Made by a program: the position numbers and the translations under genes | Shown here: in pieces, positions 6,058-34,483 of the stretch | Position numbering within the stretch: the stretch's first letter is position 1 | Layout: each line of letters starts with the position of its first letter | Assembly: GCF_000243335.1 (NCBI RefSeq) | Contig: NZ_JH597773.1 | Location: forward strand, 1,791,550 to 1,855,549 | From: Leptonema illini DSM 21528 | Lineage (GTDB): Bacteria > Spirochaetota > Leptospiria > Leptospirales > Leptonemataceae | Direction of reading: 5' to 3' | DNA: 64,000 nt | The notes under the pieces: generated by a model | The model's input: only the letters and a program-made list of their open reading frames with translations | Told to the model about the DNA's origin: nothing | The model's database searches: none

Positions 6058-7627
6058 ATGCAGGATTTTCGATCTAACATCGATATAGATATTCTCTCGC
6101 AGTATGCTCTCTACGTCGGGCTCGGCACTGCGGCATTCATTGCCATCATCGGCGCCCTCATACTGATACGACGCCTCGTGCGCCGTTTGATTCTCGGCAC
6201 GGCACGCCTTCTCAACAGATCCGTCAATCCTGTCGTTTTTCGCGGCATTCGCATTCTCAGCCCGCGACTCCTGACACGCTGGATCACCGGTCTGTTCAAG
6301 GTAATGCATCTACTTCTTTACCTGAGCATCATCTATGGCCTCGTCTCCTTCGGCCTCAGTCAGGCAACAGCCGAGTTTCGCGAATCGGCCATTCCGTTGA
6401 TACGCGGAGCACTGAGCACCATCCTGCTTTTCTTTATCGCATCGCTGATCTTCGCGGGCCTGCGTTCGATCTTTCAGATCGGCGAAAAGCAGATCCGTGT
6501 TTCGCTTCTGCCGCAGATGCGTCCGTTGCGATGGCGCGGCATGGAATTCTTGAGCGGAGCTCAGGTTCGATCGACTACGACGAATGCATATGTTCTTATT
6601 AAGTATACGGTTTACGTTGTTTCGGCGTATCTGCTACTTGTTCTGCTTTTCAGTTTCTTTGCTTTTTCCTCGGGTTGGAGCAACCGCATCCTGTCCTATG
6701 TGCTGAGCCCGCTACGATCGCTGGCAGATGGCTTCGTCGGCTATCTGCCGAATCTGTTCTTTCTCGTCATCACGCTTATCGTCGTGCGTTATACGATGCG
6801 TTTCTTCCGATCGTTTTTCGAAGGCCTGTCAACAGGACGAACGAAAATCGCCGGATTTCACCCGGAATGGGCCGACACAACGTATAAACTCGCTGTTTTT
6901 ATTCTCCTGGCCTTCACGGCGGTCCTGATCTTTCCGTATCTTCCCGGTTCGAGGCCTTCAAAGGCGTCGGGCTATTCCTCGGCTTCCTTCTCTCTCTCGG
7001 GTCGACGGCCGTCATTGCCAATATGGTTGCCGGCACGGTTCTCACCTATATGCGCCCTTTTCAGATTGGAGATCGAGTAAAGATCGCCGATACGATGGGC
7101 GACGTCGTCGAGAAAACCCTGCTTGTGACGCGCATCCGTACAGCGAAGAACGTAGAGGTAACGGTACCAACGGCCTCGTTCTTGGCGCTCATATCATCAA
7201 CTACAGCGCCGTCGCCGCAAGCGAAGGCCTGATCCTGCATACGACGGTTACGATCGGATACGACGTCCCCTGGCCGAAGGTACACGGTCTGCTACTCGAA
7301 GCGGCCCGACGCACGGAAGGCATTCTCGATACGCCACAGCCTTTTGTTCTTCAGACGGCTCTTTCGGATTTCAGCGTTGCCTATGAATTGAACGGGTATA
7401 CAGAAAAACCACAGCAGATGGCAGGCATCCACTCAGACATGCATCGTCATATTCTCGACTGTTTCAACGAAGCCGGCGTTGAGATACTCTCCCCACATTA
7501 TGAAGCGAACCGGGACGGAAATGCGCTCACCATACCCGAAAACTATGTCAGAAAAAAGGTGAACAGAACACCTTCCCGTGAGAAGGATGTGAAGGCGAAA
7601 ACAGGTCGCTCAAGGCAGAAGCAATAA
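6058..7627 (+). pseudogene. MscS-family mechanosensitive channel gene with two frameshifts
   Basis: The sequence encodes an MscS-like protein in three successive frames. The first frame gives at least five membrane segments up to FPYLPG near 6947. The reading then continues one frame over as FEAFKGVGLFLGFLLSLG and the pore/beta-domain signature RPFQIGDRVKIADTMGDV. Near 7167 a second shift restores NGLVLGAHIINYS and the C-terminal domain down to the stop at 7627. Each shift is explained by one missing base (in CCCGG|TTCGAG and in GTACC|AACGGC). Protein similarity continues cleanly across both joins, so this is either a recent pseudogene or two sequencing errors. MscS channels release solutes on hypo-osmotic shock. 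Confidence 0.85.
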
Positions 7628-9015: not shown

Positions 9016-9040
9016 CAGAACGAGATCAGACCTCCGAATC

Positions 9041-9076
9041 GGCGCCTCTTTTCTAATTGAAAAGTGGCGCCTTTTT
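9041..9076 (+). terminator. Rho-independent terminator after flaB
   Basis: GGCGCC(T)CTTTTC at 9041-9053 pairs with GAAAAG(T)GGCGCC at 9059-9071, with a short AT loop and a TTTTT tail at 9072-9076. Position and form fit a strong terminator for flagellin mRNA. Confidence 0.9.
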
Positions 9077-9149
9077 CGTCGGCTATTCCGGTCGATCCGG
9101 TCGAAAAAAAGCCCTCACCGGCCACAGTTTTTATGTCGTCAGTTTACCG

Positions 9150-10016
9150 ATGGCTGCGTCTTCTGACCTTATGGAGATGCCAGCGTATTTACAGAAGGTA
9201 GATGACTATCGCACCCTCGCCGTCGGCAGCGTCGTTCGCCGCCTCGGATCAGGAAAAGATCAGCAGGGCCGTCTGCTTGAGATTCGCGACAACGGTCTCG
9301 TTCTCGGTAACGTTATCGATTTAAGCGCCGGCGCCTTTGTCGCCGATGCAGGCCTGCTCACATTGCAGCCCGAAGATGCCGTTTACGTTCACAGCACAAG
9401 CTTTGCTACAAGCTCGAAGACGCCCGAAGCCCGCAAGCTGATCCAGGACTGGGCCCTCTTCCGCTCAGAGACGCAGCAACAGAAGGCCATCCTGGAGTTT
9501 GTGGAAAGCGTCTACAGCCCCGAACAGATCCTCGACTTCGCCTCATCGGATCAGATGAAAAACGTCTTCGTTCCCGTGCAGCAGAAGCTGAAGATCGGTC
9601 GCTTTGTCGAGAAGATCAACGTGCGTAAAGAGCGCATCGAACGCTTCCGGCAGATGATCGAGGCGCTGCATGACGGCAAGCATCTGACGTATCTTGCCTT
9701 TATTCCAAGGGAAAGCGTCGCCGAACCGATGTTCTATTCGATTGGAACGAAGCCGCATCGCGAAACGCTTGCAAAGCTTGAGCGCGAAGAGATCGCCTTC
9801 CGGCCGAACCACGGCGGGCATATCAAGATCGTCAGCGCCACGAATGAGCCGCGCAAATACATCGTCGATGCCGGCTCGAACGAGTTCGGAGTGGGAGTAC
9901 GCACACACCTCTCCACAGCCGAGATGATCACCGATGCTCTCGCGAAGCTCTTTCCCGAATACGAGTTCCGGCCCGTGCCCGGACGCGACGCCTACGGAGT
10001 CGAGCAGAGCTACTGA
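9150..10016 (+). CDS. Conserved-looking protein of unknown function
   Basis: 288 residues from the ATG at 9150; not recognised. It is soluble, with no signal peptide, starting MAASSDLMEMPAYLQKVDDY. A helical, charged middle part (about 130-215) is followed by a mixed segment (IAFRPNHGGHIKIV, FGVGVRTHLSTAEMITDAL). The frame is open back to 9057, but that part would lie over the flaB terminator, so a later start is preferred; ATGs at 9171 and 9177 are also possible. It overlaps the next gene as TGATG and is probably co-translated with it. Confidence 0.75.
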   Translation: MAASSDLMEMPAYLQKVDDYRTLAVGSVVRRLGSGKDQQGRLLEIRDNGLVLGNVIDLSAGAFVADAGLLTLQPEDAVYVHSTSFATSSKTPEARKLIQDWALFRSETQQQKAILEFVESVYSPEQILDFASSDQMKNVFVPVQQKLKIGRFVEKINVRKERIERFRQMIEALHDGKHLTYLAFIPRESVAEPMFYSIGTKPHRETLAKLEREEIAFRPNHGGHIKIVSATNEPRKYIVDAGSNEFGVGVRTHLSTAEMITDALAKLFPEYEFRPVPGRDAYGVEQSY

Positions 10017-10219
10017 TGGACGTCTACAGCCACATACTGGGCTTTGCCTTCGGAGCTATGTTGATCGGATGGTCGGTGTGGATGCTCGTGCTTCACTTTC
10101 GCACTCCACCCGAGCTCCGCGCAAAGCGTCGCGTGCGACCGTGGATACCGATCGTATTTCTGTTGATAGGCCTTGCCGATTTGAGCAAGGCCATCCGCGA
10201 TCTGATGAAGGATATGTGA
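10016..10219 (+). CDS. Small two-span membrane protein
   Basis: 67 residues with two hydrophobic segments (HILGFAFGAMLIGWSVWMLVL... near 6-27, and PWIPIVFLLIGLADL near 43-57) separated by a basic loop (RTPPELRAKRRVR). The start overlaps the upstream stop (TGATG), which supports real translation. Function unknown; tight coupling suggests it acts with the preceding protein. Confidence 0.65.
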   Translation: MDVYSHILGFAFGAMLIGWSVWMLVLHFRTPPELRAKRRVRPWIPIVFLLIGLADLSKAIRDLMKDM

Positions 10220-10298
10220 GCGAATTTCCAGATCCAAAATGGTCTTGAAAGCGAGCGGGCCTTTCTAATCCTGCTCTGATCAACAGGTACTCGGCCAG

Positions 10299-11513
10299 AT
10301 GAACTTTATCAAGCAAGCAGCGGCTTACATCTTTTCTCCCTTCTCGGCTGCCGAAAACGAAATCCGGGCGTTGCATGGACTCAGGGCGCTCTCTATTCTT
10401 GGAATCATCGTATATCACGCGTGGCATGTGGCCTCAAATACACATCTGACCTGGATGCCCGAAATCGCCGGTCGATTTCTTCCCAATCTCACGACAACGG
10501 TGAATCTGTTTTTCATGCTTTCGGGCTATCTGATCACAAGCGGATTGCTGCATGAATGGAAGAAAAAGGGCAGGATCGACTTTCGCATCTTCTTTTTAAA
10601 ACGTACGTTTCGCATTTTCCCTTCCTATTACATTCTCGTCTTCTTCATGATCTTCTTCGTCGGAGCGCAGATCAGAATCGTCGAAGGCCTTCCCGAGCCG
10701 ACTGCCGATCAGCAGCGCATGCTTGCCGACATGCAGGCGTCATACGCCAACCGAATCTGGGATCTGCTCTACCTGTCGAACTTCGTTCAGGGTCGGCTTG
10801 TGGAACATGGCTGGACTTTGAGTATTGAAGAGCAGTATTACCTCGTCTTTCCGCTTCTTGCGTCTTTGCTTATATTCCGGCTTGAGCGGAAGCATCGCCT
10901 GTATTTTCTTCTCGCACTCTATTTCATTCCTCTCCTTTCTCGTCTCTACTATCTTTATGTTTCCGTCACTCCCGACAGCGCCTTCAAGGTCTACTATTAC
11001 AGCCATACACGCTTCGATTCCATACTTGTGGGGGTTCTCATCGCCGTTTTCATTCACGACTGGCGAGATCTTTACAACCGCCTGATGGATCATCATGCCG
11101 GCAAGTTAGCCATCGCTTCGGTGCTGCTGTATGCCCTGCGCCACCTGTGGAATATCAACGAGGCCAACTACGAGAATGCGCTTGGCTACAACTTTGCCGA
11201 CCTTTCTTATGGAGGCATGATTCTCGTCGGGATCCATGGAAAAACATGGCTGGCAAAAGCGCTGAGCATCAGACCGCTCATCCCCGTGGCAAAAGTCAGC
11301 TACAGTATGTATCTGTGGCATATGCTCTTAACGGGAGTGGCCTTCAGTAAGAACTACAGGATCGGGGAGCCCATCACGCCGTTTCTTTTATCGCTGATCA
11401 CCGTCTCGGCCATCGTCTACAGCTTCCTGATGGCCTGGTTCATGTACGTCGTCGTCGAGGCTCCGTTTATGAAGCTTCGTGACCGAGTTCTGAGAAGATT
11501 TCGCGAGGCATGA
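10299..11513 (+). CDS. Acyltransferase family 3 (OafA/YrhL-like) membrane protein
   Basis: 404 residues with about ten membrane spans. The family signature is clear at the N-terminus: IRALHGLRALSILGIIVYHAWH, with the active-site-type histidine in YHAWH. Further family features are the FFMLSGYLIT segment and SVTYSM-like VSYSMYLWHM near residue 335. These enzymes O-acylate extracytoplasmic sugars such as LPS O-antigen or peptidoglycan. It is an isolated gene, without other polysaccharide genes next to it. Confidence 0.9.
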   Translation: MNFIKQAAAYIFSPFSAAENEIRALHGLRALSILGIIVYHAWHVASNTHLTWMPEIAGRFLPNLTTTVNLFFMLSGYLITSGLLHEWKKKGRIDFRIFFLKRTFRIFPSYYILVFFMIFFVGAQIRIVEGLPEPTADQQRMLADMQASYANRIWDLLYLSNFVQGRLVEHGWTLSIEEQYYLVFPLLASLLIFRLERKHRLYFLLALYFIPLLSRLYYLYVSVTPDSAFKVYYYSHTRFDSILVGVLIAVFIHDWRDLYNRLMDHHAGKLAIASVLLYALRHLWNINEANYENALGYNFADLSYGGMILVGIHGKTWLAKALSIRPLIPVAKVSYSMYLWHMLLTGVAFSKNYRIGEPITPFLLSLITVSAIVYSFLMAWFMYVVVEAPFMKLRDRVLRRFREA

Positions 11514-11542
11514 GCGCATGACGGCGATCGGGCTCTCATGCC
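11507..11542. terminator. Possible stem-loop between convergent genes
   Basis: GGCATGAG at 11507-11514 pairs with CTCATGCC at 11535-11542 around a 20-base loop, at the end of the acyltransferase gene and before the convergent SDR gene. There is no T-tract, so the call is weak. Confidence 0.3.
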
Positions 11543-11584
11543 ATGCCGCGCGAATCAAGCATTCATATCAAGTACGCTAAACCA

Positions 11585-12343
11585 TCACCAGGGGATCGTC
11601 TGGTTCGGCCATTGCGTGAACGTGCCGGCCGGTTCATCGGGCCCGAGCAAGGCCACTCGCACGACTTCGCGAGCCCCGTCTTCTACGGTTTCAAAGCCCG
11701 TAAAACCGGTCAGCGCAGTCCTTGTAAAAGCCGGAGAAGCAAGCCTTACCTTGATCGGAGTATTCTCAAGCTCGACCATCATGGATAACGTGATTGCGTT
11801 CATGGCCGCTTTTGACGCAGAATAGCCCGGACCGAACATTCCGTGATAGGGAGAATCAGGATCCACATTCAAGTTCAGCGATCCCATCGCACTCGAAACA
11901 TTGACGATGCTGCCAGCTTCTGACTTCCGAAGCAACGGAAGCATTTCCTGATACACGGCAAGAACACCGAATACGTTCGTCTCCCAGATCGCTTTTACCT
12001 CATCAAGAGATACCGTGCTCGGCAGAGCCAGCGGCGCATAATCAACCAGAGAAAGCCCGAGGTTCTCCCTTCTTGTGCTGAAAATCCCCGCATTCTGCAC
12101 GAGGACGTCAAGCCGTCCGAACTGCGCGTCGATCTTGCAAGCGGCCTCGGCAATCGACGTGCGATCCGTTACATCGAGCTGAACGGCATGCGCAGATGAT
12201 CCGATCTCTTTCGCGGCGGCTTCTCCGCGCGAATGATTCCGTGAGCCGACGAGCACCGTCAGCCCGTGATTGGCCAGCTCCCGGGCAACCTGAAATCCCA
12301 CCCCCTGATTTGCTCCGGTGATCAGGGCAATACGTTTATCCAT
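11585..12343 (-). CDS. Short-chain dehydrogenase/reductase
   Basis: 252 residues from the ATG at 12343, which has AGGAGG at the right distance; the longer open frame to 12562 is not needed. Classical SDR features in order: ALITGANQGVGFQVA (TGxxxGxG, residues 6-20), LDVT, LVQNAGIF (NAG), NVSSAMG (catalytic Ser) and YSASKAAMN (YxxxK). The protein resembles carbonyl-reductase-type SDRs. It is divergent from the Crp-type regulator gene (152 bp between starts), which may control it. Substrate unknown. Confidence 0.92.
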   Translation of the reverse strand: MDKRIALITGANQGVGFQVARELANHGLTVLVGSRNHSRGEAAAKEIGSSAHAVQLDVTDRTSIAEAACKIDAQFGRLDVLVQNAGIFSTRRENLGLSLVDYAPLALPSTVSLDEVKAIWETNVFGVLAVYQEMLPLLRKSEAGSIVNVSSAMGSLNLNVDPDSPYHGMFGPGYSASKAAMNAITLSMMVELENTPIKVRLASPAFTRTALTGFTGFETVEDGAREVVRVALLGPDEPAGTFTQWPNQTIPW

Positions 12344-12495
12344 CTTTTCCTCCTGTGCTTTATGCACAGGATCGATTAAGTAGCTGTAATCCCATCGGGC
12401 CATAGACAAATGATAAGATCTTGTTCCGGAGCAGTATCCAGGGCCGGTCACAACATTGAATTGCCGTTCGCCAGCTCTTTGCCTAACATTATTGC

Positions 12496-13098
12496 ATGCA
12501 TGAGGCGTATGAGCAGATGCGAAAGAGCCTGCTACAGTGGGTGGAGATTCCCGACGACGCATGGTCTATGATGCGGCAGATCTTTCATGTAAAGAAGATT
12601 CCACGTCAGGGATTCCTCAAGCAACCCGGCGATACACGCACGGTCACGGTCTTTGTTTGCTCGGGCCTGCTGCGTTATTTTTCAGGGCAGAGCGATCAGA
12701 TGCAGGTGAATAAGCTTTTTCTAACGGAGGGCATGTTCTTGAGTCCTGCTTCGGGTTGCTCTATCAGCTCGGGGTCGGACTGTGGAATCCAGGCGTTGGA
12801 GCCCACAGTAGCCCTTGTCGCCGATACAGACGCATATAACGCCCTATTCGAGCAGCATCCAATCTTTGATCGTCTTGGCCGCAAACTCAGCACCTACTGG
12901 CTGGAGCAGAATCGGACTCTCACCTTTCAGAAGCTCAATGCAACGGAGCGCTACAAGCAGCTCATCCGACAGAACTCCGATCTGGTGCAGCGAGTGCCGC
13001 AGGTCCATATCGCATCGTATCTCGGTATTACAGAGGTCTCGCTTTCCAGAATCCGTCGCCAGTTAGCACAACAGGCCCGTAACAGAAGGTGGGCTTGA
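12496..13098 (+). CDS. Crp/Fnr-family transcription regulator
   Basis: 200 residues: an N-terminal cyclic-nucleotide-binding-like beta domain (about 20-120, VCSGLLRYFSGQSDQMQVNKLF) and a C-terminal helix-turn-helix (QVHIASYLGITEVSLSRIRRQL, about 170-192). The phosphate-binding cassette of true Crp (GE...RSA) is not visible, so it may not bind cAMP. No good ribosome site precedes the ATG. It is divergent from the SDR gene and probably regulates it, a common arrangement. Confidence 0.85.
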   Translation: MHEAYEQMRKSLLQWVEIPDDAWSMMRQIFHVKKIPRQGFLKQPGDTRTVTVFVCSGLLRYFSGQSDQMQVNKLFLTEGMFLSPASGCSISSGSDCGIQALEPTVALVADTDAYNALFEQHPIFDRLGRKLSTYWLEQNRTLTFQKLNATERYKQLIRQNSDLVQRVPQVHIASYLGITEVSLSRIRRQLAQQARNRRWA

Positions 13099-13143
13099 AG
13101 GAGCGAGAGCCAGATCGACGGGAGGGGCAACGAAAACTACATG

Positions 13144-13203
13144 CGCGGTAGCGAATGCTACAGGAGCTATTCAACCGGAGCGGTCGCGAATGCCACAGTC
13201 GCC
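13144..13203 (+). repeat. Two imperfect direct copies of a 20-bp motif with dyad symmetry
   Basis: GCGGTAGCGAATGCTACAGG (from 13144) and GCGGTCGCGAATGCCACAGT (from 13181) differ at four positions. The first contains a perfect short inverted repeat, GTAGC-GAAT-GCTAC. They lie between the end of the Crp-type gene and palindromic repeat A. They may be operators or remnants of a small hairpin; no further copies were noticed. Confidence 0.5.
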
Positions 13204-13208
13204 GGCGC

Positions 13209-13246
13209 GCGACATAAGAATATTATGTTCGCATTGGGATTGTCCC
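13209..13246 (+). repeat. Palindromic repeat A, left part (split by the IS5-family element)
   Basis: This AT-rich segment begins GCGACATAAG and ends GATTGTCCC. It is the first 38 bases of a 57-bp unit whose remaining 19 bases lie beyond the IS, at 14365-14383. When rejoined it matches repeats B, C and D in length, terminal GCGACATAA/TTATGTCGC and the internal TGTCCC. The last nine bases (13238-13246) are the IS target duplication. Confidence 0.88.
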
Positions 13247-13309
13247 GGCTTTGTTGCGCAAAGATCATCTGAACCAATGGCCTCCCGGATTTCGATTCCA
13301 GAACGTTTA

Positions 13310-14299
13310 TTACTTGATTCGCTTCTCTGTTTTTGGTTTAGCCGTCTTGATCATTTTGTTAAGCATAGAGGCCCGCAAAGCGACCTCTACCCGCTGGTTC
13401 TCAAGGTTACGAGCGCTCAGGCGGTCACCGAACGTTCGCTTGTAGCGATAGATTGCCATTTCTACAAGTGATCGTTTGAAATATCCGCTCTCTGTCTTCC
13501 AACCTCCTTTTCCGATTTCCCGAATTCTTTTCACGATTTCATCGCGTGGCCAGGTATTATCCATGGCATTCTCGTATTTTTCGCTTGATAGAATGGCTCC
13601 TTCCCTGCTTGGAATAATGGCTTTGATTCCATGCTGCAAGCATGTCAGAAACACTCTATGAGCATCGTACGCTCCATCCCCGCGAAAATCCTTTATGTCA
13701 TAGCCTTGCTTTACGAGTGATCGAATGATATCGGGTGCGGGCTCCGCATCGTGAGTATCACGCTGGGTTAGTAACGCAGTCAGTATCTGTCCGCTACCTG
13801 CATCAATGGCAAGATGAAGCTTGCGCCATGTCCTTCGTTTCCCCGCACCGTGCTCGCGAACTTTCCATTCGCCTTCGCCGAAAACCTTGAGCCCCGTTCC
13901 GTCGAGTACAAGATGAATTGGTTTTGATCGGATTCCCTTCGGCAATTTGATAGAAGGGGAGAGCCGACCCTGTCTGCGTGAGATTCGACTGTAATCCGGT
14001 ACTTCCAGATCCAATCCGGAGAGCTTGAAAAGCGATGCCAGCAGCCCCGTTGTTTGCCGTAGAGGCAGCCCGAAGAGACTCTTCAAAACGAGAACGCATT
14101 CAATAGCAGCATCAGAGTATTTATCTCTTCTTCCCCGGCGATTCGGTGTTTCCACGGAATACCAGCGATCCTCAATTCCATCCTCTATCCAGAGACAGAG
14201 ATCCCCTCGCTTAACGAGCCCTCTGTTGTAATCTCTCCAGTTCAGAACTCGATAGGGAACCTTTGGATCTTGCTTTCCCTTTATCCGCAATGCGCTCAT
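13310..14299 (-). CDS. IS5-family DDE transposase
   Basis: 329 residues, intact. The catalytic residues are visible: Asp in LVLDGTGLK, Asp in RGDGAYDAH, and Glu in the Y-(2)-R-(3)-E-(6)-K signature YFKRSLVEMAIYRYK. The N-terminus has the NWRDYNRGLVKRGDL segment typical of IS5/IS903 transposases. Its start codon lies inside a sequence that matches one half of the palindromic repeat interrupted by this same element. Confidence 0.96.
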   Translation of the reverse strand: MSALRIKGKQDPKVPYRVLNWRDYNRGLVKRGDLCLWIEDGIEDRWYSVETPNRRGRRDKYSDAAIECVLVLKSLFGLPLRQTTGLLASLFKLSGLDLEVPDYSRISRRQGRLSPSIKLPKGIRSKPIHLVLDGTGLKVFGEGEWKVREHGAGKRRTWRKLHLAIDAGSGQILTALLTQRDTHDAEPAPDIIRSLVKQGYDIKDFRGDGAYDAHRVFLTCLQHGIKAIIPSREGAILSSEKYENAMDNTWPRDEIVKRIREIGKGGWKTESGYFKRSLVEMAIYRYKRTFGDRLSARNLENQRVEVALRASMLNKMIKTAKPKTEKRIK

Positions 14300-14316
14300 A
14301 ATATCGTTATGTCGCT
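14293..14316 (-). repeat. Half-copy of the palindromic repeat inside the IS5-family element
   Basis: Read on the minus strand, 14316 down to 14289 matches the first 28 bases of repeat A at 24 positions (by eye), including GCGACATAA, ATATTATG and CGCATT. It overlaps the transposase start codon. The match may reflect shared ancestry, a preferred target, or chance in AT-rich DNA. Confidence 0.5.
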
Positions 14317-14364
14317 AGGGCCGCAAAGTACAAGCCTTTTTTGCGCAACAAAGCCGATTGTCCC

Positions 14365-14383
14365 GATATTTTTATTATGTCGC
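14365..14383 (+). repeat. Palindromic repeat A, right part
   Basis: GATATTTTTATTATGTCGC, continuing the repeat after the second copy of the 9-bp target duplication (14356-14364). Together with 13209-13246 it rebuilds a 57-bp unit. Confidence 0.88.
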
Positions 14384-14595
14384 GCCCTGATAATGCCTGT
14401 AGCCTATCGGTCGGACTCCGCTCATCCGCTGGCAATTCCGCCTGTACCCCTCCGTCAACTCCCCTCTCCGGCTGACATTTTTGCGCTTCCCCCATCCTCC
14501 GACCCGTTGCCCTGCCACCGGGACGCTCCCTGTTCAAAATGACTTGCTCGCCTCGCCCGTTCGCCGAACGTAGCTTCAGATAACAGGGGGACGAG

Positions 14596-16620
14596 ATGAG
14601 CGAAAAGAAGCCTCACATCATCAGCGACGCCGAAGGCAAGCCGACACGAGATAAGCCGTGGATCTTCCGCACCTACGGCGGCCACACAAACGTCTGGGAA
14701 ACGAACCACCTCTATCGCGAAGGCCTGAAGCGCGGACAGACCGGTCTTTCCATCGCCTTCGATCTGCCCACACAGTGCGGCTATTCCTCTGATCATGCGA
14801 TCTCACGCCCCGAGATCGGTAAGGTCGGAGTTCCGATCAACTCCCTTGACGACTTCCACGTATTATTCGATCAGATTCCCATCGAAGAGATGAACACGTC
14901 GATGACGATTAACGGCACGGCGATGTGGCTTCTCTCGCTTTACGTGGCCCTCGCCCGCGAAAAAGGCGTCGACGTGTCGAAGCTGAACGGCACGACGCAG
15001 AACGATCTTGTTAAAGAATACCTGGCGCGCGGCACGTATATCTTCCCGCCCGAGGCGTCGTTTCGGCTGATCAGCGAGATGTACGAGTTCTGCATCGATA
15101 ACGTGCCGAAATGGAATCCCTCCAATATCTGTTCCTATCACCTGCAAGAGGCCGGAGCGACGCCGGCGCAAGAGCTGGCGTTTGCACTGTCGAACGCGAT
15201 CGGTCTTCTCGATACGATTCGTTCCCGCGGTCATCTCAATCAGGATCAGTTCGAGCAGGTCGTCGGCCGCATCTCGTTCTTTGTTAACGCCGGCATCCGC
15301 TTTGTAGAAGAGATGTGCAAGATGCGCGCCTTCAGCGAACTGTGGGAGGAGATCACCCGCGAACGTTACGGTGTGAAGAATCCGAAGTATCGACTCTTCC
15401 GCTACGGCGTTCAGGTGAACTCCCTTGGATTAACCGAGAACCAGCCCGAGAATAACGCCTGGCGTATTCTGATCGAGGCGCTCGGTGTGACGCTTTCGCG
15501 TAACGCACGCTGTCGCGCACTGCAGCTTCCGGCATGGAACGAGGCGCTCTCTCTGCCCCGTCCGTGGGATCAGCAATGGTCGCTGCGTCTGCAGCAGATT
15601 ATGGCCTACGAAACCGACCTGCTTGAGTACCCCGATCTTTTCGACGGCTCGAAGGTCGTCGAATCGAAGGTCGCCGATCTGAAAGACCAGGCGCGCAGCG
15701 AGATTCAGAAGATCCTCGATATGGGCGGCGTGCAAGCTGCCGTAGAATCCGGCTACATGAAGTCGGCTCTCGTAAAAAGTATGTCGGAACGCCTGAGTAA
15801 GATCAACTCGGGCGAACTGATCGTCGTCGGTATGAACAAATGGACGGACGGCATCGACTCTCCTCTTCTTTCAGGAGAGGACGGCGGCATTTTCAAGGTC
15901 GACGCCGATTCCGCTAAAAAAACGTTAACCTCTCTTGAAGAAACGAAGGCGAAGCGCGATCCGGCCAGAGCGGCGGCGGCCATCGAGGCTTTGAAGGCGG
16001 CGGCACGCGAAGGCCGTAACATGATGGAGCCGTCCATAGAATGCGCCCTTGCTCGCATCACGACCGGCGAATGGGCGGCCGCCATGCGCGAGGTATTCGG
16101 CGAATATCGTCCGCCGACGGGCATCGAAGGCCAGCGCCTCAGCCTCGAGAACGATCGCGTGAACGCCCTTCGCGCCCGCGTCGAGTCGTTCACACAGCGC
16201 GTCGGACACCGTCCGCGTATCGTCGTCGGCAAGCCCGGCCTTGACGGACATTCAAACGGCGCCGAGATGATCGCCGTGTCGGCACGCCATTCGGGCTTCG
16301 ACGTGATCTATTCCGGCATCCGACTGACGCCCGAAGAGATCGTACAGAGCGCCGTCGACGAGAATGCCGACATCATCGGCGTTTCGATTCTCTCGGGCTC
16401 GCATCTTGAGCTTGCGCGACAGATCATGGAGCGTCTTGAACAATCCGGCGCGAAAGATCGGATTCCCGTCGTCTTCGGCGGCATCATTCCGAAAGGGGAC
16501 TTTGCGCAGCTCGAAGGCATCGGCGTTAAGCGCATCTTCACTCCGGCCGACTACCAACTCATCGACATTATGGAACGTATCATGGAAGTCGTCGAAGAGC
16601 AGGCATCTGCAAAGGCGTGA
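14596..16620 (+). CDS. meaA: Methylmalonyl-CoA mutase family protein, MeaA / ethylmalonyl-CoA mutase-like
   Basis: 674 residues with both modules: a TIM-barrel mutase domain (PWIFRTYGGHTNVWETN, SIAFDLPTQCGYSSDH, MNTSMTINGTAMWLL, SYHLQEAGATPAQE) and a C-terminal B12-binding domain with KPGLDGHSNGAEM near 545-557, where the His coordinates cobalt. The DGHSNGAE form, rather than DGHDRGA, is typical of MeaA/ethylmalonyl-CoA mutases, so this is probably that branch. It rearranges the carbon skeleton of an acyl-CoA using adenosylcobalamin. GGGGG precedes the ATG. The next gene, its MeaB chaperone, begins within its stop (GTGA). Confidence 0.9.
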   Translation: MSEKKPHIISDAEGKPTRDKPWIFRTYGGHTNVWETNHLYREGLKRGQTGLSIAFDLPTQCGYSSDHAISRPEIGKVGVPINSLDDFHVLFDQIPIEEMNTSMTINGTAMWLLSLYVALAREKGVDVSKLNGTTQNDLVKEYLARGTYIFPPEASFRLISEMYEFCIDNVPKWNPSNICSYHLQEAGATPAQELAFALSNAIGLLDTIRSRGHLNQDQFEQVVGRISFFVNAGIRFVEEMCKMRAFSELWEEITRERYGVKNPKYRLFRYGVQVNSLGLTENQPENNAWRILIEALGVTLSRNARCRALQLPAWNEALSLPRPWDQQWSLRLQQIMAYETDLLEYPDLFDGSKVVESKVADLKDQARSEIQKILDMGGVQAAVESGYMKSALVKSMSERLSKINSGELIVVGMNKWTDGIDSPLLSGEDGGIFKVDADSAKKTLTSLEETKAKRDPARAAAAIEALKAAAREGRNMMEPSIECALARITTGEWAAAMREVFGEYRPPTGIEGQRLSLENDRVNALRARVESFTQRVGHRPRIVVGKPGLDGHSNGAEMIAVSARHSGFDVIYSGIRLTPEEIVQSAVDENADIIGVSILSGSHLELARQIMERLEQSGAKDRIPVVFGGIIPKGDFAQLEGIGVKRIFTPADYQLIDIMERIMEVVEEQASAKA

Positions 16621-22189: not shown

Positions 22190-22266
22190 GAGGACCGGGA
22201 GAGCTGAAGAGGGTTAACCAGTAGAGTAGAGAGGGTGCCGGAAGCCCGGCAGCCCTCCCCCTCGTC

Positions 22267-22300
22267 AAACCGGACGTGCAGATTTCCCGCATCCGGCTTT
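22267..22300 (-). ncRNA. Group II intron domain V
   Basis: A 34-nt catalytic hairpin typical of group II introns: the 5' arm has AGCCGGATGCGGG, then the GAAA-like turn, then the 3' arm GCACGTCCGGTT. It lies 46 nt before the inferred 3' end of the intron. Confidence 0.85.
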
Positions 22301-22328
22301 CCCGAAAACAGACCATCCCAGAGCGTAT

Positions 22329-23708
<1,380 letters not shown>

Positions 23709-24157
23709 TCTTATCCAAACTTGTTTTCGGCAGAGTCCCTTCGCTCCACCGGAATTACCCGACTTCCTCGCTACTATGGACTCCTCCGACTCCCGATGAG
23801 GATGAGTCACAGTTATGGATTCCTGTCACTCGTTGCCGAATCCCTCACCGGGCCTCCCAGGTTCCTCATGTCTTCCTTCTGCAAGTGCTATCCGCTCTGA
23901 CCCCGAGCAGCCAGTCGGGTGCTAACCATTGCTTCCCCGACCGTGTCAGGCTTCACCAACTCCGAGAGGCTGGCCGCTGCTAATGGTGTAACGAGGCTCA
24001 TGTCGGTTCACTTTTGTTACGGCCCTTACATTTGATCCGCGTGGCTTCACCCAAATGGATTACTCCAGCAGATGCACGCTTCACTACCCGCCGAATGGCT
24101 AATTGCGGGGTGGGTACCTTTCAACCCACGGGAGAACACAGGCTTATCCTGGCGCAC

Positions 24158-24562
24158 CGGAGGGCACGGAGGAACGCGGAGAAGACAGGGAGAGAGATGA
24201 ACTGCTGAGAGTACGAGGGCCGACTGAGGAAGAAGGGTGGCGTTTTTCTGATTCGGAATGGGCTGTTGCTGGCAGTCGCCGGCCTTTTCGAGCCCTTGCC
24301 GAGCAGCGGCGCGACATAATCTCATTATTTTCGCATTCGAATGTCCCTATAATTTTAATATGTCGCTCGGCGTCTTCCAGCAAAATGCACGATATCTCGC
24401 GCACTGTATAGCGAGCTAAACAATCTGTCGCGCGCCCGAGCCCGTTCTATACCAGCCGGCCTGCGCCGAAGTCCCGCCTGATTTGCATGCCATCCCGCCC
24501 ACAGCGACCTTCTCCCTCATCCGCAGCACACATACTGAAGTTAACGCCGCTCCACGCAGCGA
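24158..24562. other. Non-coding stretch between the intron and the MORN gene
   Basis: No credible gene. It holds an uneven GC-rich segment directly beyond the intron, palindromic repeat B (24311-24366) with its conserved flanks, and about 150 bp before the end of the MORN lipoprotein gene in which I see nothing else. Confidence 0.6.
24311..24366 (+). repeat. Palindromic repeat B (56 bp)
   Basis: It runs from GCGACATAAT to AATATGTCGC, with internal CATTCGAATGTCCC. Length and landmarks match repeats A, C and D. Similarity to repeat C extends outward: TTGCCGAG begins 15 bp before both copies, and a downstream block with GCAAAAT, CACGATATC and CGCGC follows, so the shared unit in B is about 24296-24403. 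Confidence 0.9.
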
Positions 24563-25486: not shown

Positions 25487-25729
25487 ACTCAACTTCAATG
25501 CTGTGTGTTCCGTTACAGGCAAGGCGGTTTTTATCCTGTTCACAGATCGGATGCTCGGTTGCGAGAGTGATCGCGCTTTTGCCGAGAAACGGAGCGACAT
25601 AATGTCATTATTTTCTCATAAGAATGTCCCCATAATTTTAATATGTCGCGCCGGAGCCCGTACCACGCCGTATGTCGAGCACCGTATTCCTGCAAAATAC
25701 ACGATATCCCGCGCGCCGGAGCCATCCCC
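25487..25729. other. Non-coding stretch upstream of the MORN gene
   Basis: No gene seen. It contains palindromic repeat C (25594-25649) with its flanking conserved block, ending at the left terminus of the IS1182-type element. The promoter of the MORN gene must lie here. Confidence 0.6.
25594..25649 (+). repeat. Palindromic repeat C (56 bp)
   Basis: It runs from GCGACATAAT to AATATGTCGC in the same orientation as repeat B and is the closest to it (most differences are near the centre, CATAAG versus CATTCG). The shared unit extends from TTGCCGAG at 25579 to about 25713. Relative to B there is an extra stretch of about 29 bp before a second TATGTCG at 25671, after which the block with GCAAAAT and CACGATATC aligns without gaps. 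Confidence 0.9.
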
Positions 25730-34427: not shown

Positions 34428-34483
34428 ACGACATAAAAAAAATATCTTCACATTAAGATGTCCCGGTAATAATATTATGTCCC
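34428..34483 (+). repeat. Palindromic repeat D (56 bp, more divergent)
   Basis: It runs from ACGACATAAA to ATTATGTCCC, with internal CTTCACATTAAGATGTCCC. Spacing of the landmarks is identical to B and C. Its outer ends are degenerate (ACGACA and TGTCCC in place of GCGACA and TGTCGC), and the conserved outer blocks shared by B and C are absent. Confidence 0.82.

What the first reader, a model, noticed from the sequence alone, without database searches (positions are those of the whole stretch)
24311..24366. A family of 56-57 bp AT-rich palindromic repeats with fixed internal layout
Four copies (A 13209-13246 plus 14365-14383; B 24311-24366; C 25594-25649; D 34428-34483) share terminal GCGACATAA and TTATGTCGC-like ends, a central CAT-NN-ATG dyad and a TGTCCC at the same distance from both ends, in GC-rich surroundings. 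GACAT/ATGTC motifs recur about every 20 bp on both strands, as in recombinase or transposase binding arrays. None contains a gene. They mark accessory spots: beside an IS, around a MORN gene, and ahead of a block of small membrane proteins. They may be MITEs moved by an enzyme encoded elsewhere.
Basis: seen in the sequence. Interest (0 to 1): 0.72.

Follow-up and report, generated by a model that had tools for sequence, protein, structure and literature searches.

The report
Palindromic repeats targeted by insertion sequences
The spirochete Leptonema illini carries about a dozen and a half scattered copies of a short AT-rich palindromic DNA sequence between its genes, and all twelve complete copies of two of its jumping genes have landed in the middle of these or closely related palindromes, so the repeats act as landing pads rather than being jumping elements of the usual kind.

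Summary
B, C and D (56 bp) and A (57 bp once its insert is set aside) form a dispersed family. A score matrix trained only on copies outside the window gives 53-75 bits to these four; the best of 60 shuffled windows gives 18. The genome is Leptonema illini 3055T. It holds about 13 full palindromes plus a few solo half-sites, all intergenic. None convincing was found in 197 relatives, IMG/VR, GTDB species genomes or plasmids.

The MITE reading is not supported. There is no target duplication around the repeats, no pair of ends enclosing a mobilising gene, and no REP-type (Y1) transposase.

Copy A is split by an IS5-family element with a 9-bp duplication. All 12 end-complete copies of this IS and a sister IS (49% identical transposases) lie inside such palindromes: 8 in this family, 4 in a related one (GACATAAC...GTTAGTC). 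In full-length family copies the duplicated bases are almost always positions 20-28 counted from one end or the other, the same place in either arm.

Best explanation: a species-restricted family of extragenic palindromic binding sites, comparable to REP sequences, used as landing sites by two ISs. What binds the palindrome in the cell is not known. New member of a known kind.

The parts
13209..13246 (+). copy A, left part (positions 1-38 of 57), ending in the 9 bp duplicated by the IS (13238-13246 GATTGTCCC)
13247..14355 (-). IS 'T1', 1109 bp, IS5 family (DDE_Tnp_1_5/DDE_Tnp_1 transposase 13310-14299), ends GGCTTTGTTGCGCAA, inserted in copy A
14356..14383 (+). copy A, right part: 9-bp duplicate GATTGTCCC 14356-14364, then GATATTTTTATTATGTCGC
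24311..24366 (+). copy B, intact 56-bp palindrome
25594..25649 (+). copy C, intact 56-bp palindrome, same orientation as B; about 22 bp to the left and about 30 bp to the right (offset) also resemble B's flanks
34428..34483 (+). copy D, intact 56-bp palindrome, ends less perfect (ACGACATAA / TTATGTCCC)
13151..13198 (+). degenerate 35-bp repeat (GCGAATGCYACAG twice) close to the left end of copy A, like the repeats that abut other copies

Best explanation
The repeats are a species-restricted family of extragenic palindromic DNA sites, comparable to REP/palindromic units in kind but unrelated to them in sequence. They serve as landing sites for two related IS5-family ISs (T1, 1109 bp; T2, 1132 bp). 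Each full site is two inverted half-sites of about 25 bp. The left one reads GCGACATAA-N5-TTATnTTCRCAT. The right one reads, on the opposite strand, GCGACATAAtAAnATTAnnGGRACA. Shown: every complete copy of both ISs sits in such a palindrome. Shown: in full-length family-1 sites the duplicated 8-9 bp lie at positions 20-28 from one end or, in the other arm, the mirror place. Inferred: the transposase, or a host protein or cruciform that it follows, reads the palindrome and cuts at a set distance from the arm. Inferred: the sites themselves are kept as sequence-specific binding sites for a dimeric DNA-binding protein. Copies multiply at least partly by segmental duplication.
For: Dispersed copies with fixed spacing: (full copies at E 3e-16 to 2e-12, split halves at 1e-8 to 3e-4). 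Twelve of twelve end-complete IS copies, at ten sites, lie in palindromes: seven family-1 sites with eight ISs, three family-2 sites with four ISs. About 25 sites of 57 bp are roughly 0.03% of the genome, so this is far beyond chance. In full-length sites the centre of the duplicated bases is +5.0, +5.0, +5.0, -5.0 and +6.0 from the dyad axis, which fits a target read from either arm. In a shortened 51-bp copy (K235) the offset is -2.0, but the bases hit are again 20-28 from the left end. Both ISs are recent (T1 98.2-100% and T2 99.9-100% identical between copies) and share 49% of transposase residues. Solo half-sites exist. What is conserved is the sequence: covariation is no better than shuffles. 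There is published precedent for IS families, IS5 included, that choose REP sequences (PMC1525189).
Against: No binding protein was identified. A host role for the palindromes is inference from conservation alone. A 44%-identical IS5-family relative in Nostoc with similar ends sits in a non-palindromic target, so the preference is not general to the group. Two T2 copies (2693526, 2756995) lack duplications, so their insertion history is less clear. IS copies truncated at both ends would have escaped the end search.
Confidence: 0.72

Rival explanations
1. MITEs: miniature elements with inverted ends, moved by a transposase or recombinase encoded elsewhere.
For: Dispersed copies with conserved inverted ends and fixed length; intergenic.
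Against: No target duplication among 13 copies; no autonomous element with these ends in the genome; no copies in relatives, IMG/VR, GTDB species genomes or plasmids.
Confidence: 0.1
2. attC- or dif-like recombination sites: two inverted recombinase core sites that fold into a hairpin, used by an integron-type or Xer recombinase.
For: A 24-25-bp imperfect dyad in each half, and solo half-sites. Single-strand folds of B and C give outer arm, 5-nt unpaired spacers, inner arm. Family 2 carries AAC/GTT arms (CGTTAGTCGAA) close to the attC-like sites of the genome's own cassette array (CGTTAGGCGAA).
Against: Family 1 lacks the attC GTT/AAC boxes. Sites are scattered singly, not in a cassette array. 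The IntI-like integrase is at 23 kb, far from any family-1 copy. Half-site spacer is 5 bp where dif has 6, and no dif-like match was found. No covariation.
Confidence: 0.1
3. REP sequences in the strict sense, spread by a RAYT (Y1) transposase.
For: Palindromic, extragenic, IS-targeted.
Against: No Y1_Tnp gene in the genome; no GTAG or CGTC foot seen; about 13-20 copies where REPs usually exceed 100 (PMC2817692); 56 bp and AT-rich.
Confidence: 0.03
4. Bidirectional transcription terminators or mRNA-stabilising hairpins.
For: B and C fold on both strands better than shuffles (z -2.8 to -4.0).
Against: No terminator-like match at B or C; D's other strand folds no better than shuffles; several sites lie between divergent or tandem genes, not convergent ones; no covariation.
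Confidence: 0.05

Closest known systems
REP / palindromic units and the ISs that target them (IS1397, ISKpn1, IS621, ISPpu9, ISRm22; PMC1525189)
   Same: Extragenic palindromes dispersed in one species; particular ISs insert only into them, at a fixed place inside the palindrome; IS5-family members are among the known REP-choosing ISs.
   Different: Different sequence; AT-rich; 56-57 bp with two half-sites; few copies; no Y1 transposase; two sister ISs share one target family.
IS5 family, IS903-like group
   Same: DDE_Tnp_1_5/DDE_Tnp_1 transposase, GGCTTTGTTG ends, 8-9-bp duplications (group assignment from knowledge; family and annotated relatives).
   Different: Complete target fidelity in this genome; a Nostoc relative does not show it.
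Integron attC sites
   Same: Imperfect palindrome with paired outer arms and unpaired spacers; family 2 has AAC/GTT arms.
   Different: Family 1 lacks the GTT/AAC boxes; sites are scattered singly; not linked to the integrase.
MITEs / RIT-element ends
   Same: Short, gene-less, inverted ends, dispersed.
   Different: No duplication, no autonomous partner, no recombinase trio in the genome.

Membership tests
MITE | flanking target-site duplication | tested here: not met
   13 copies: no excess of direct repeats of 2-10 bp at the two flanks
MITE | autonomous element with the same ends and a transposase | tested here: not met
   Pattern and profile searches of the whole genome found only palindromes split by ISs with their own ends
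REP (RAYT-associated) | Y1/RAYT transposase in the genome | tested here: not met
   PF01797: 0 matches, controls ring
REP (RAYT-associated) | extragenic palindrome, many copies | tested here: inconclusive
   Extragenic and palindromic, but about 13 full copies
IS-target palindrome (REP-like landing site) | all or most copies of an IS lie inside the palindrome at a fixed place | tested here: met
   12 of 12 IS copies in palindromes; duplicated bases at +5/-5/+6 from the axis in full-length family-1 copies
attC | R''/R' boxes RYYYAAC...GTTRRRY | tested here: not met
   Family 1 has AAT...ATT; family 2 only approximates the boxes
attC | recombined by an integron integrase | not testable with these tools
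   needs an assay
structured RNA | compensatory base changes | tested here: not met
   1 pair changed on both sides, shuffles give 1.0

The most novel reading that the evidence does not exclude
The palindromes and their solo half-sites are recombination sites of a so far undescribed kind, related to attC or dif, used in Leptonema to move accessory genes singly to scattered places (a MORN gene between B and C; a defence-like cluster beside the copy at C1:2397563; a Fic/Doc-like pair near the one at C1:3869097), and the two ISs parasitise these sites as some ISs and group IIC introns parasitise attC.
Probability: 0.1. Interest if true: 0.75.

Novelty: new member of a known kind. Interest (0 to 1): 0.42.

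Why it matters
A clean natural case of target choice by two sister DDE transposases: every copy in one palindrome superfamily, at mirror-image places in the two arms. This makes a testable system for how a cut-and-paste transposase reads a palindrome, and shows how intergenic palindromes can act as safe landing sites that keep ISs out of genes. The palindromes themselves appear undescribed; the two searches for papers on Leptonema repeats or integrons found none that deals with them.

Tried and rejected
RIT-element ends: the lead was recalled, and PMC3414803 reports a 28-9-bp inverted repeat with an overlapping palindrome, but the genome has only four tyrosine recombinases and no trio. dif: no match within 3 mismatches of an E. 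coli-type dif. Group II intron: the window's intron (RT 22430-23692 on the - strand, RNA domains at 24120-23893 and 22301-22221) starts near 24156 as judged by eye, about 150 bp from B, so it is not inserted in the palindrome. RNA structure: no covariation. Matches in relatives (L051, L052, L130-L135) are single partial ones; those read lie in AT-rich DNA or coding sequence, or are one half-site before a start codon. The Chitinophaga and Patescibacteria hits were single L-half matches and not followed. The four IMG/VR hits are one coding stretch. A check of whether relatives' ISs choose palindromes gave one usable case, negative.

Full report
Setting. The window is C1:1791550-1855549 of a 4,522,760-bp genome in three contigs of which C1 is 4,325,094 bp and C3 184,087 bp. 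These numbers match the published assembly of Leptonema illini 3055T, a spirochete of the order Leptospirales (PMC3746420).

Observation. All four copies are present as described. B, C and D are 56 bp. A is 57 bp once the 1109-bp insert and one 9-bp duplicate are set aside. A score matrix trained on six copies outside the window puts the window's four copies at 52.9-74.9 bits; the best of 60 dinucleotide shuffles reaches 18.3. So the family is not chance.

Copies in the genome. Pattern and profile searches give full or IS-split 51-58-bp palindromes at A, B, C, D and at C1:234636-235827, 1214636, 1227952-1229149, 2182437-2184751, 2224380-2225554, 2397563, 2693499-2694685 and 2695752-2696926; a 69-bp variant made of two left halves at 3869097; and a decayed copy at 2801037. 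Solo left halves lie at 2042269 and 3538264 and 3538438, with weaker ones at 2042549 and 2716267. By a codon-score gene call all are intergenic. The left end is usually preceded by GGC or GGGC. The sequence, not the pairing, is conserved: 1 pair changed on both sides against 1.0 in shuffles.

Outside the genome. 197 relatives gave no full copy (partial hits at E 4e-4 to 4e-3 per genome, those inspected look like chance). The left half was not found in IMG/VR, and a looser form hit only one coding stretch in four contigs. In the GTDB species genomes there were two single matches, not followed. The plasmid collection gave one weak match, E 5. No other genome of the genus was in the set of relatives.

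The IS association. A carries an IS5-family element (T1; DDE_Tnp_1_5 and DDE_Tnp_1). A search for GGCTTTGTTGYRYW ends finds five complete T1 (1109 bp) and seven complete T2 (1132 bp) in the genome. Their transposases are 49% identical; T1 copies are 98.2-100% and T2 copies 99.9-100% identical. All twelve, at ten sites, lie inside palindromes. Eight are in family-1 sites (A; C1:2224380; 2695752; 235827; 1229149; 2693499; and both at 2182437). Four are in a second family: CGGGCGCAATGTGACATAACG...CGTTAGTCGAA at 83541, 2756995 and 2034119, the last with both ISs; an IS-free member lies at 1073608 and a looser one at about 32.1 kb. At two sites T2 and T1 stand back to back, sharing copies of the duplicated bases. 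Setting the IS and one duplicate aside restores a 57-bp palindrome in four cases and 58, 51 and 55 bp in the others. The duplicated bases are GATTGTCCC, GAGTGTTCC/GAATGTTCC, CATTGTCCC and AATGTYCC at one place, and TTCACATCA and TTCGCATTC at its mirror image. In full-length sites the offsets from the dyad axis are +5, +5, +5, -5 and +6; the 51-bp site gives -2 because its right half is shorter. This mirror symmetry is the strongest mechanistic clue: the choice of place is read from an arm of the palindrome, in either half.

Why not MITEs. No target duplication flanks the palindromes. No end pair encloses a mobilising gene of its own. The four tyrosine recombinases (two XerC/D-like, one on contig C3, one IntI-like at 23 kb) are not at any copy. 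There is no Y1 transposase. The copies at 2693499 and 2695752 share 77-80% identical flanks over 823 and 444 bp and lie between three tandem paralogous genes, so one copy came by tandem duplication. B and C share short flanking stretches too.

Mechanism. Shown: the target association, the mirror-image insertion places, the duplications, the recency of the ISs. Inferred: recognition of the palindrome by the transposase or through a bound host protein or cruciform. Inferred: the palindrome is a binding site of a dimeric protein, because the half-site is a dyad (ACATAA-N5-TTATGT), occurs alone, and is conserved as sequence. Not known: which protein, and what for.

Compared with the known. IS elements that choose extragenic palindromes are known (IS1397, ISKpn1, IS621, ISPpu9, ISRm22 and others; five IS families, IS5 included; PMC1525189). 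This is the same kind of system with a new palindrome and two new ISs. It is not a REP in the strict sense because the RAYT gene is missing. An attC- or dif-like role is not excluded, most of all for family 2, whose CGTTAGTCGAA arm is near the CGTTAGGCGAA of the genome's own cassette-like array, but family 1 lacks the defining boxes.

Further association. Degenerate C-rich tandem repeats with units of about 28-40 bp start at the outer end of several copies (C1:235827, 2042294, both 3538 sites, family 2 at 84709 and 32.2 kb). In 347 kb of DNA fetched around such sites, most of the non-coding arrays of this period found by a self-match scan abut a palindrome end. The fetched DNA was chosen around the palindromes, so this is suggestive only. 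The cause is unknown.

Noticed in passing
L183 (C1:14001-34000), integrase 9040-10251, array about 10300-16500: Chromosomal integron-like array in Leptonema: an IntI/XerA-like integrase without the IntI-specific insert (by eye and from the split match to TIGR02249), followed by AT-rich genes separated by attC-like sites (e.g. ACATAAC...GTTATGCG, CGCATAAC...GTTATGCG). A 2013 paper (PMC3607928) held that among spirochetes only Treponema carries integrons.
   Followed up: partly
window 22210-24156, - strand (5' end judged by eye): Group II intron with reverse transcriptase (RVT_1, GIIM), about 150 bp from palindrome B but not inserted in it.
   Followed up: partly
L136 6822-6897, L140 12290-12435, L147 6468-6534, L183 18169-18390, L184 about 6700-6800: Degenerate C-rich tandem repeats with units of about 28-40 bp that begin at the outer end of palindromes (TTATGTCGC|GCCCG...).
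   Followed up: partly
C1:2692586-2697675 (L144): Three tandem paralogous genes for exported proteins, palindrome plus IS between each pair; flanks 77-80% identical.
   Followed up: partly
C1:1073824-1073874 (L186, beside tmRNA), C1:2036 kb, C1:2041 kb: Another dispersed stretch of about 50 bp with a palindrome (CGAACCAGGCCTGGTGCTCAACC), one copy just downstream of the tmRNA gene.
   Followed up: no
C1:2397716-2401082 (L143) and C1:3867408-3868143 (L148): Judged by eye, a Vsr-like endonuclease with a GHKL-type ATPase, and a Fic/Doc-like toxin with its antitoxin, lie near palindromes: possible accessory spots.
   Followed up: no
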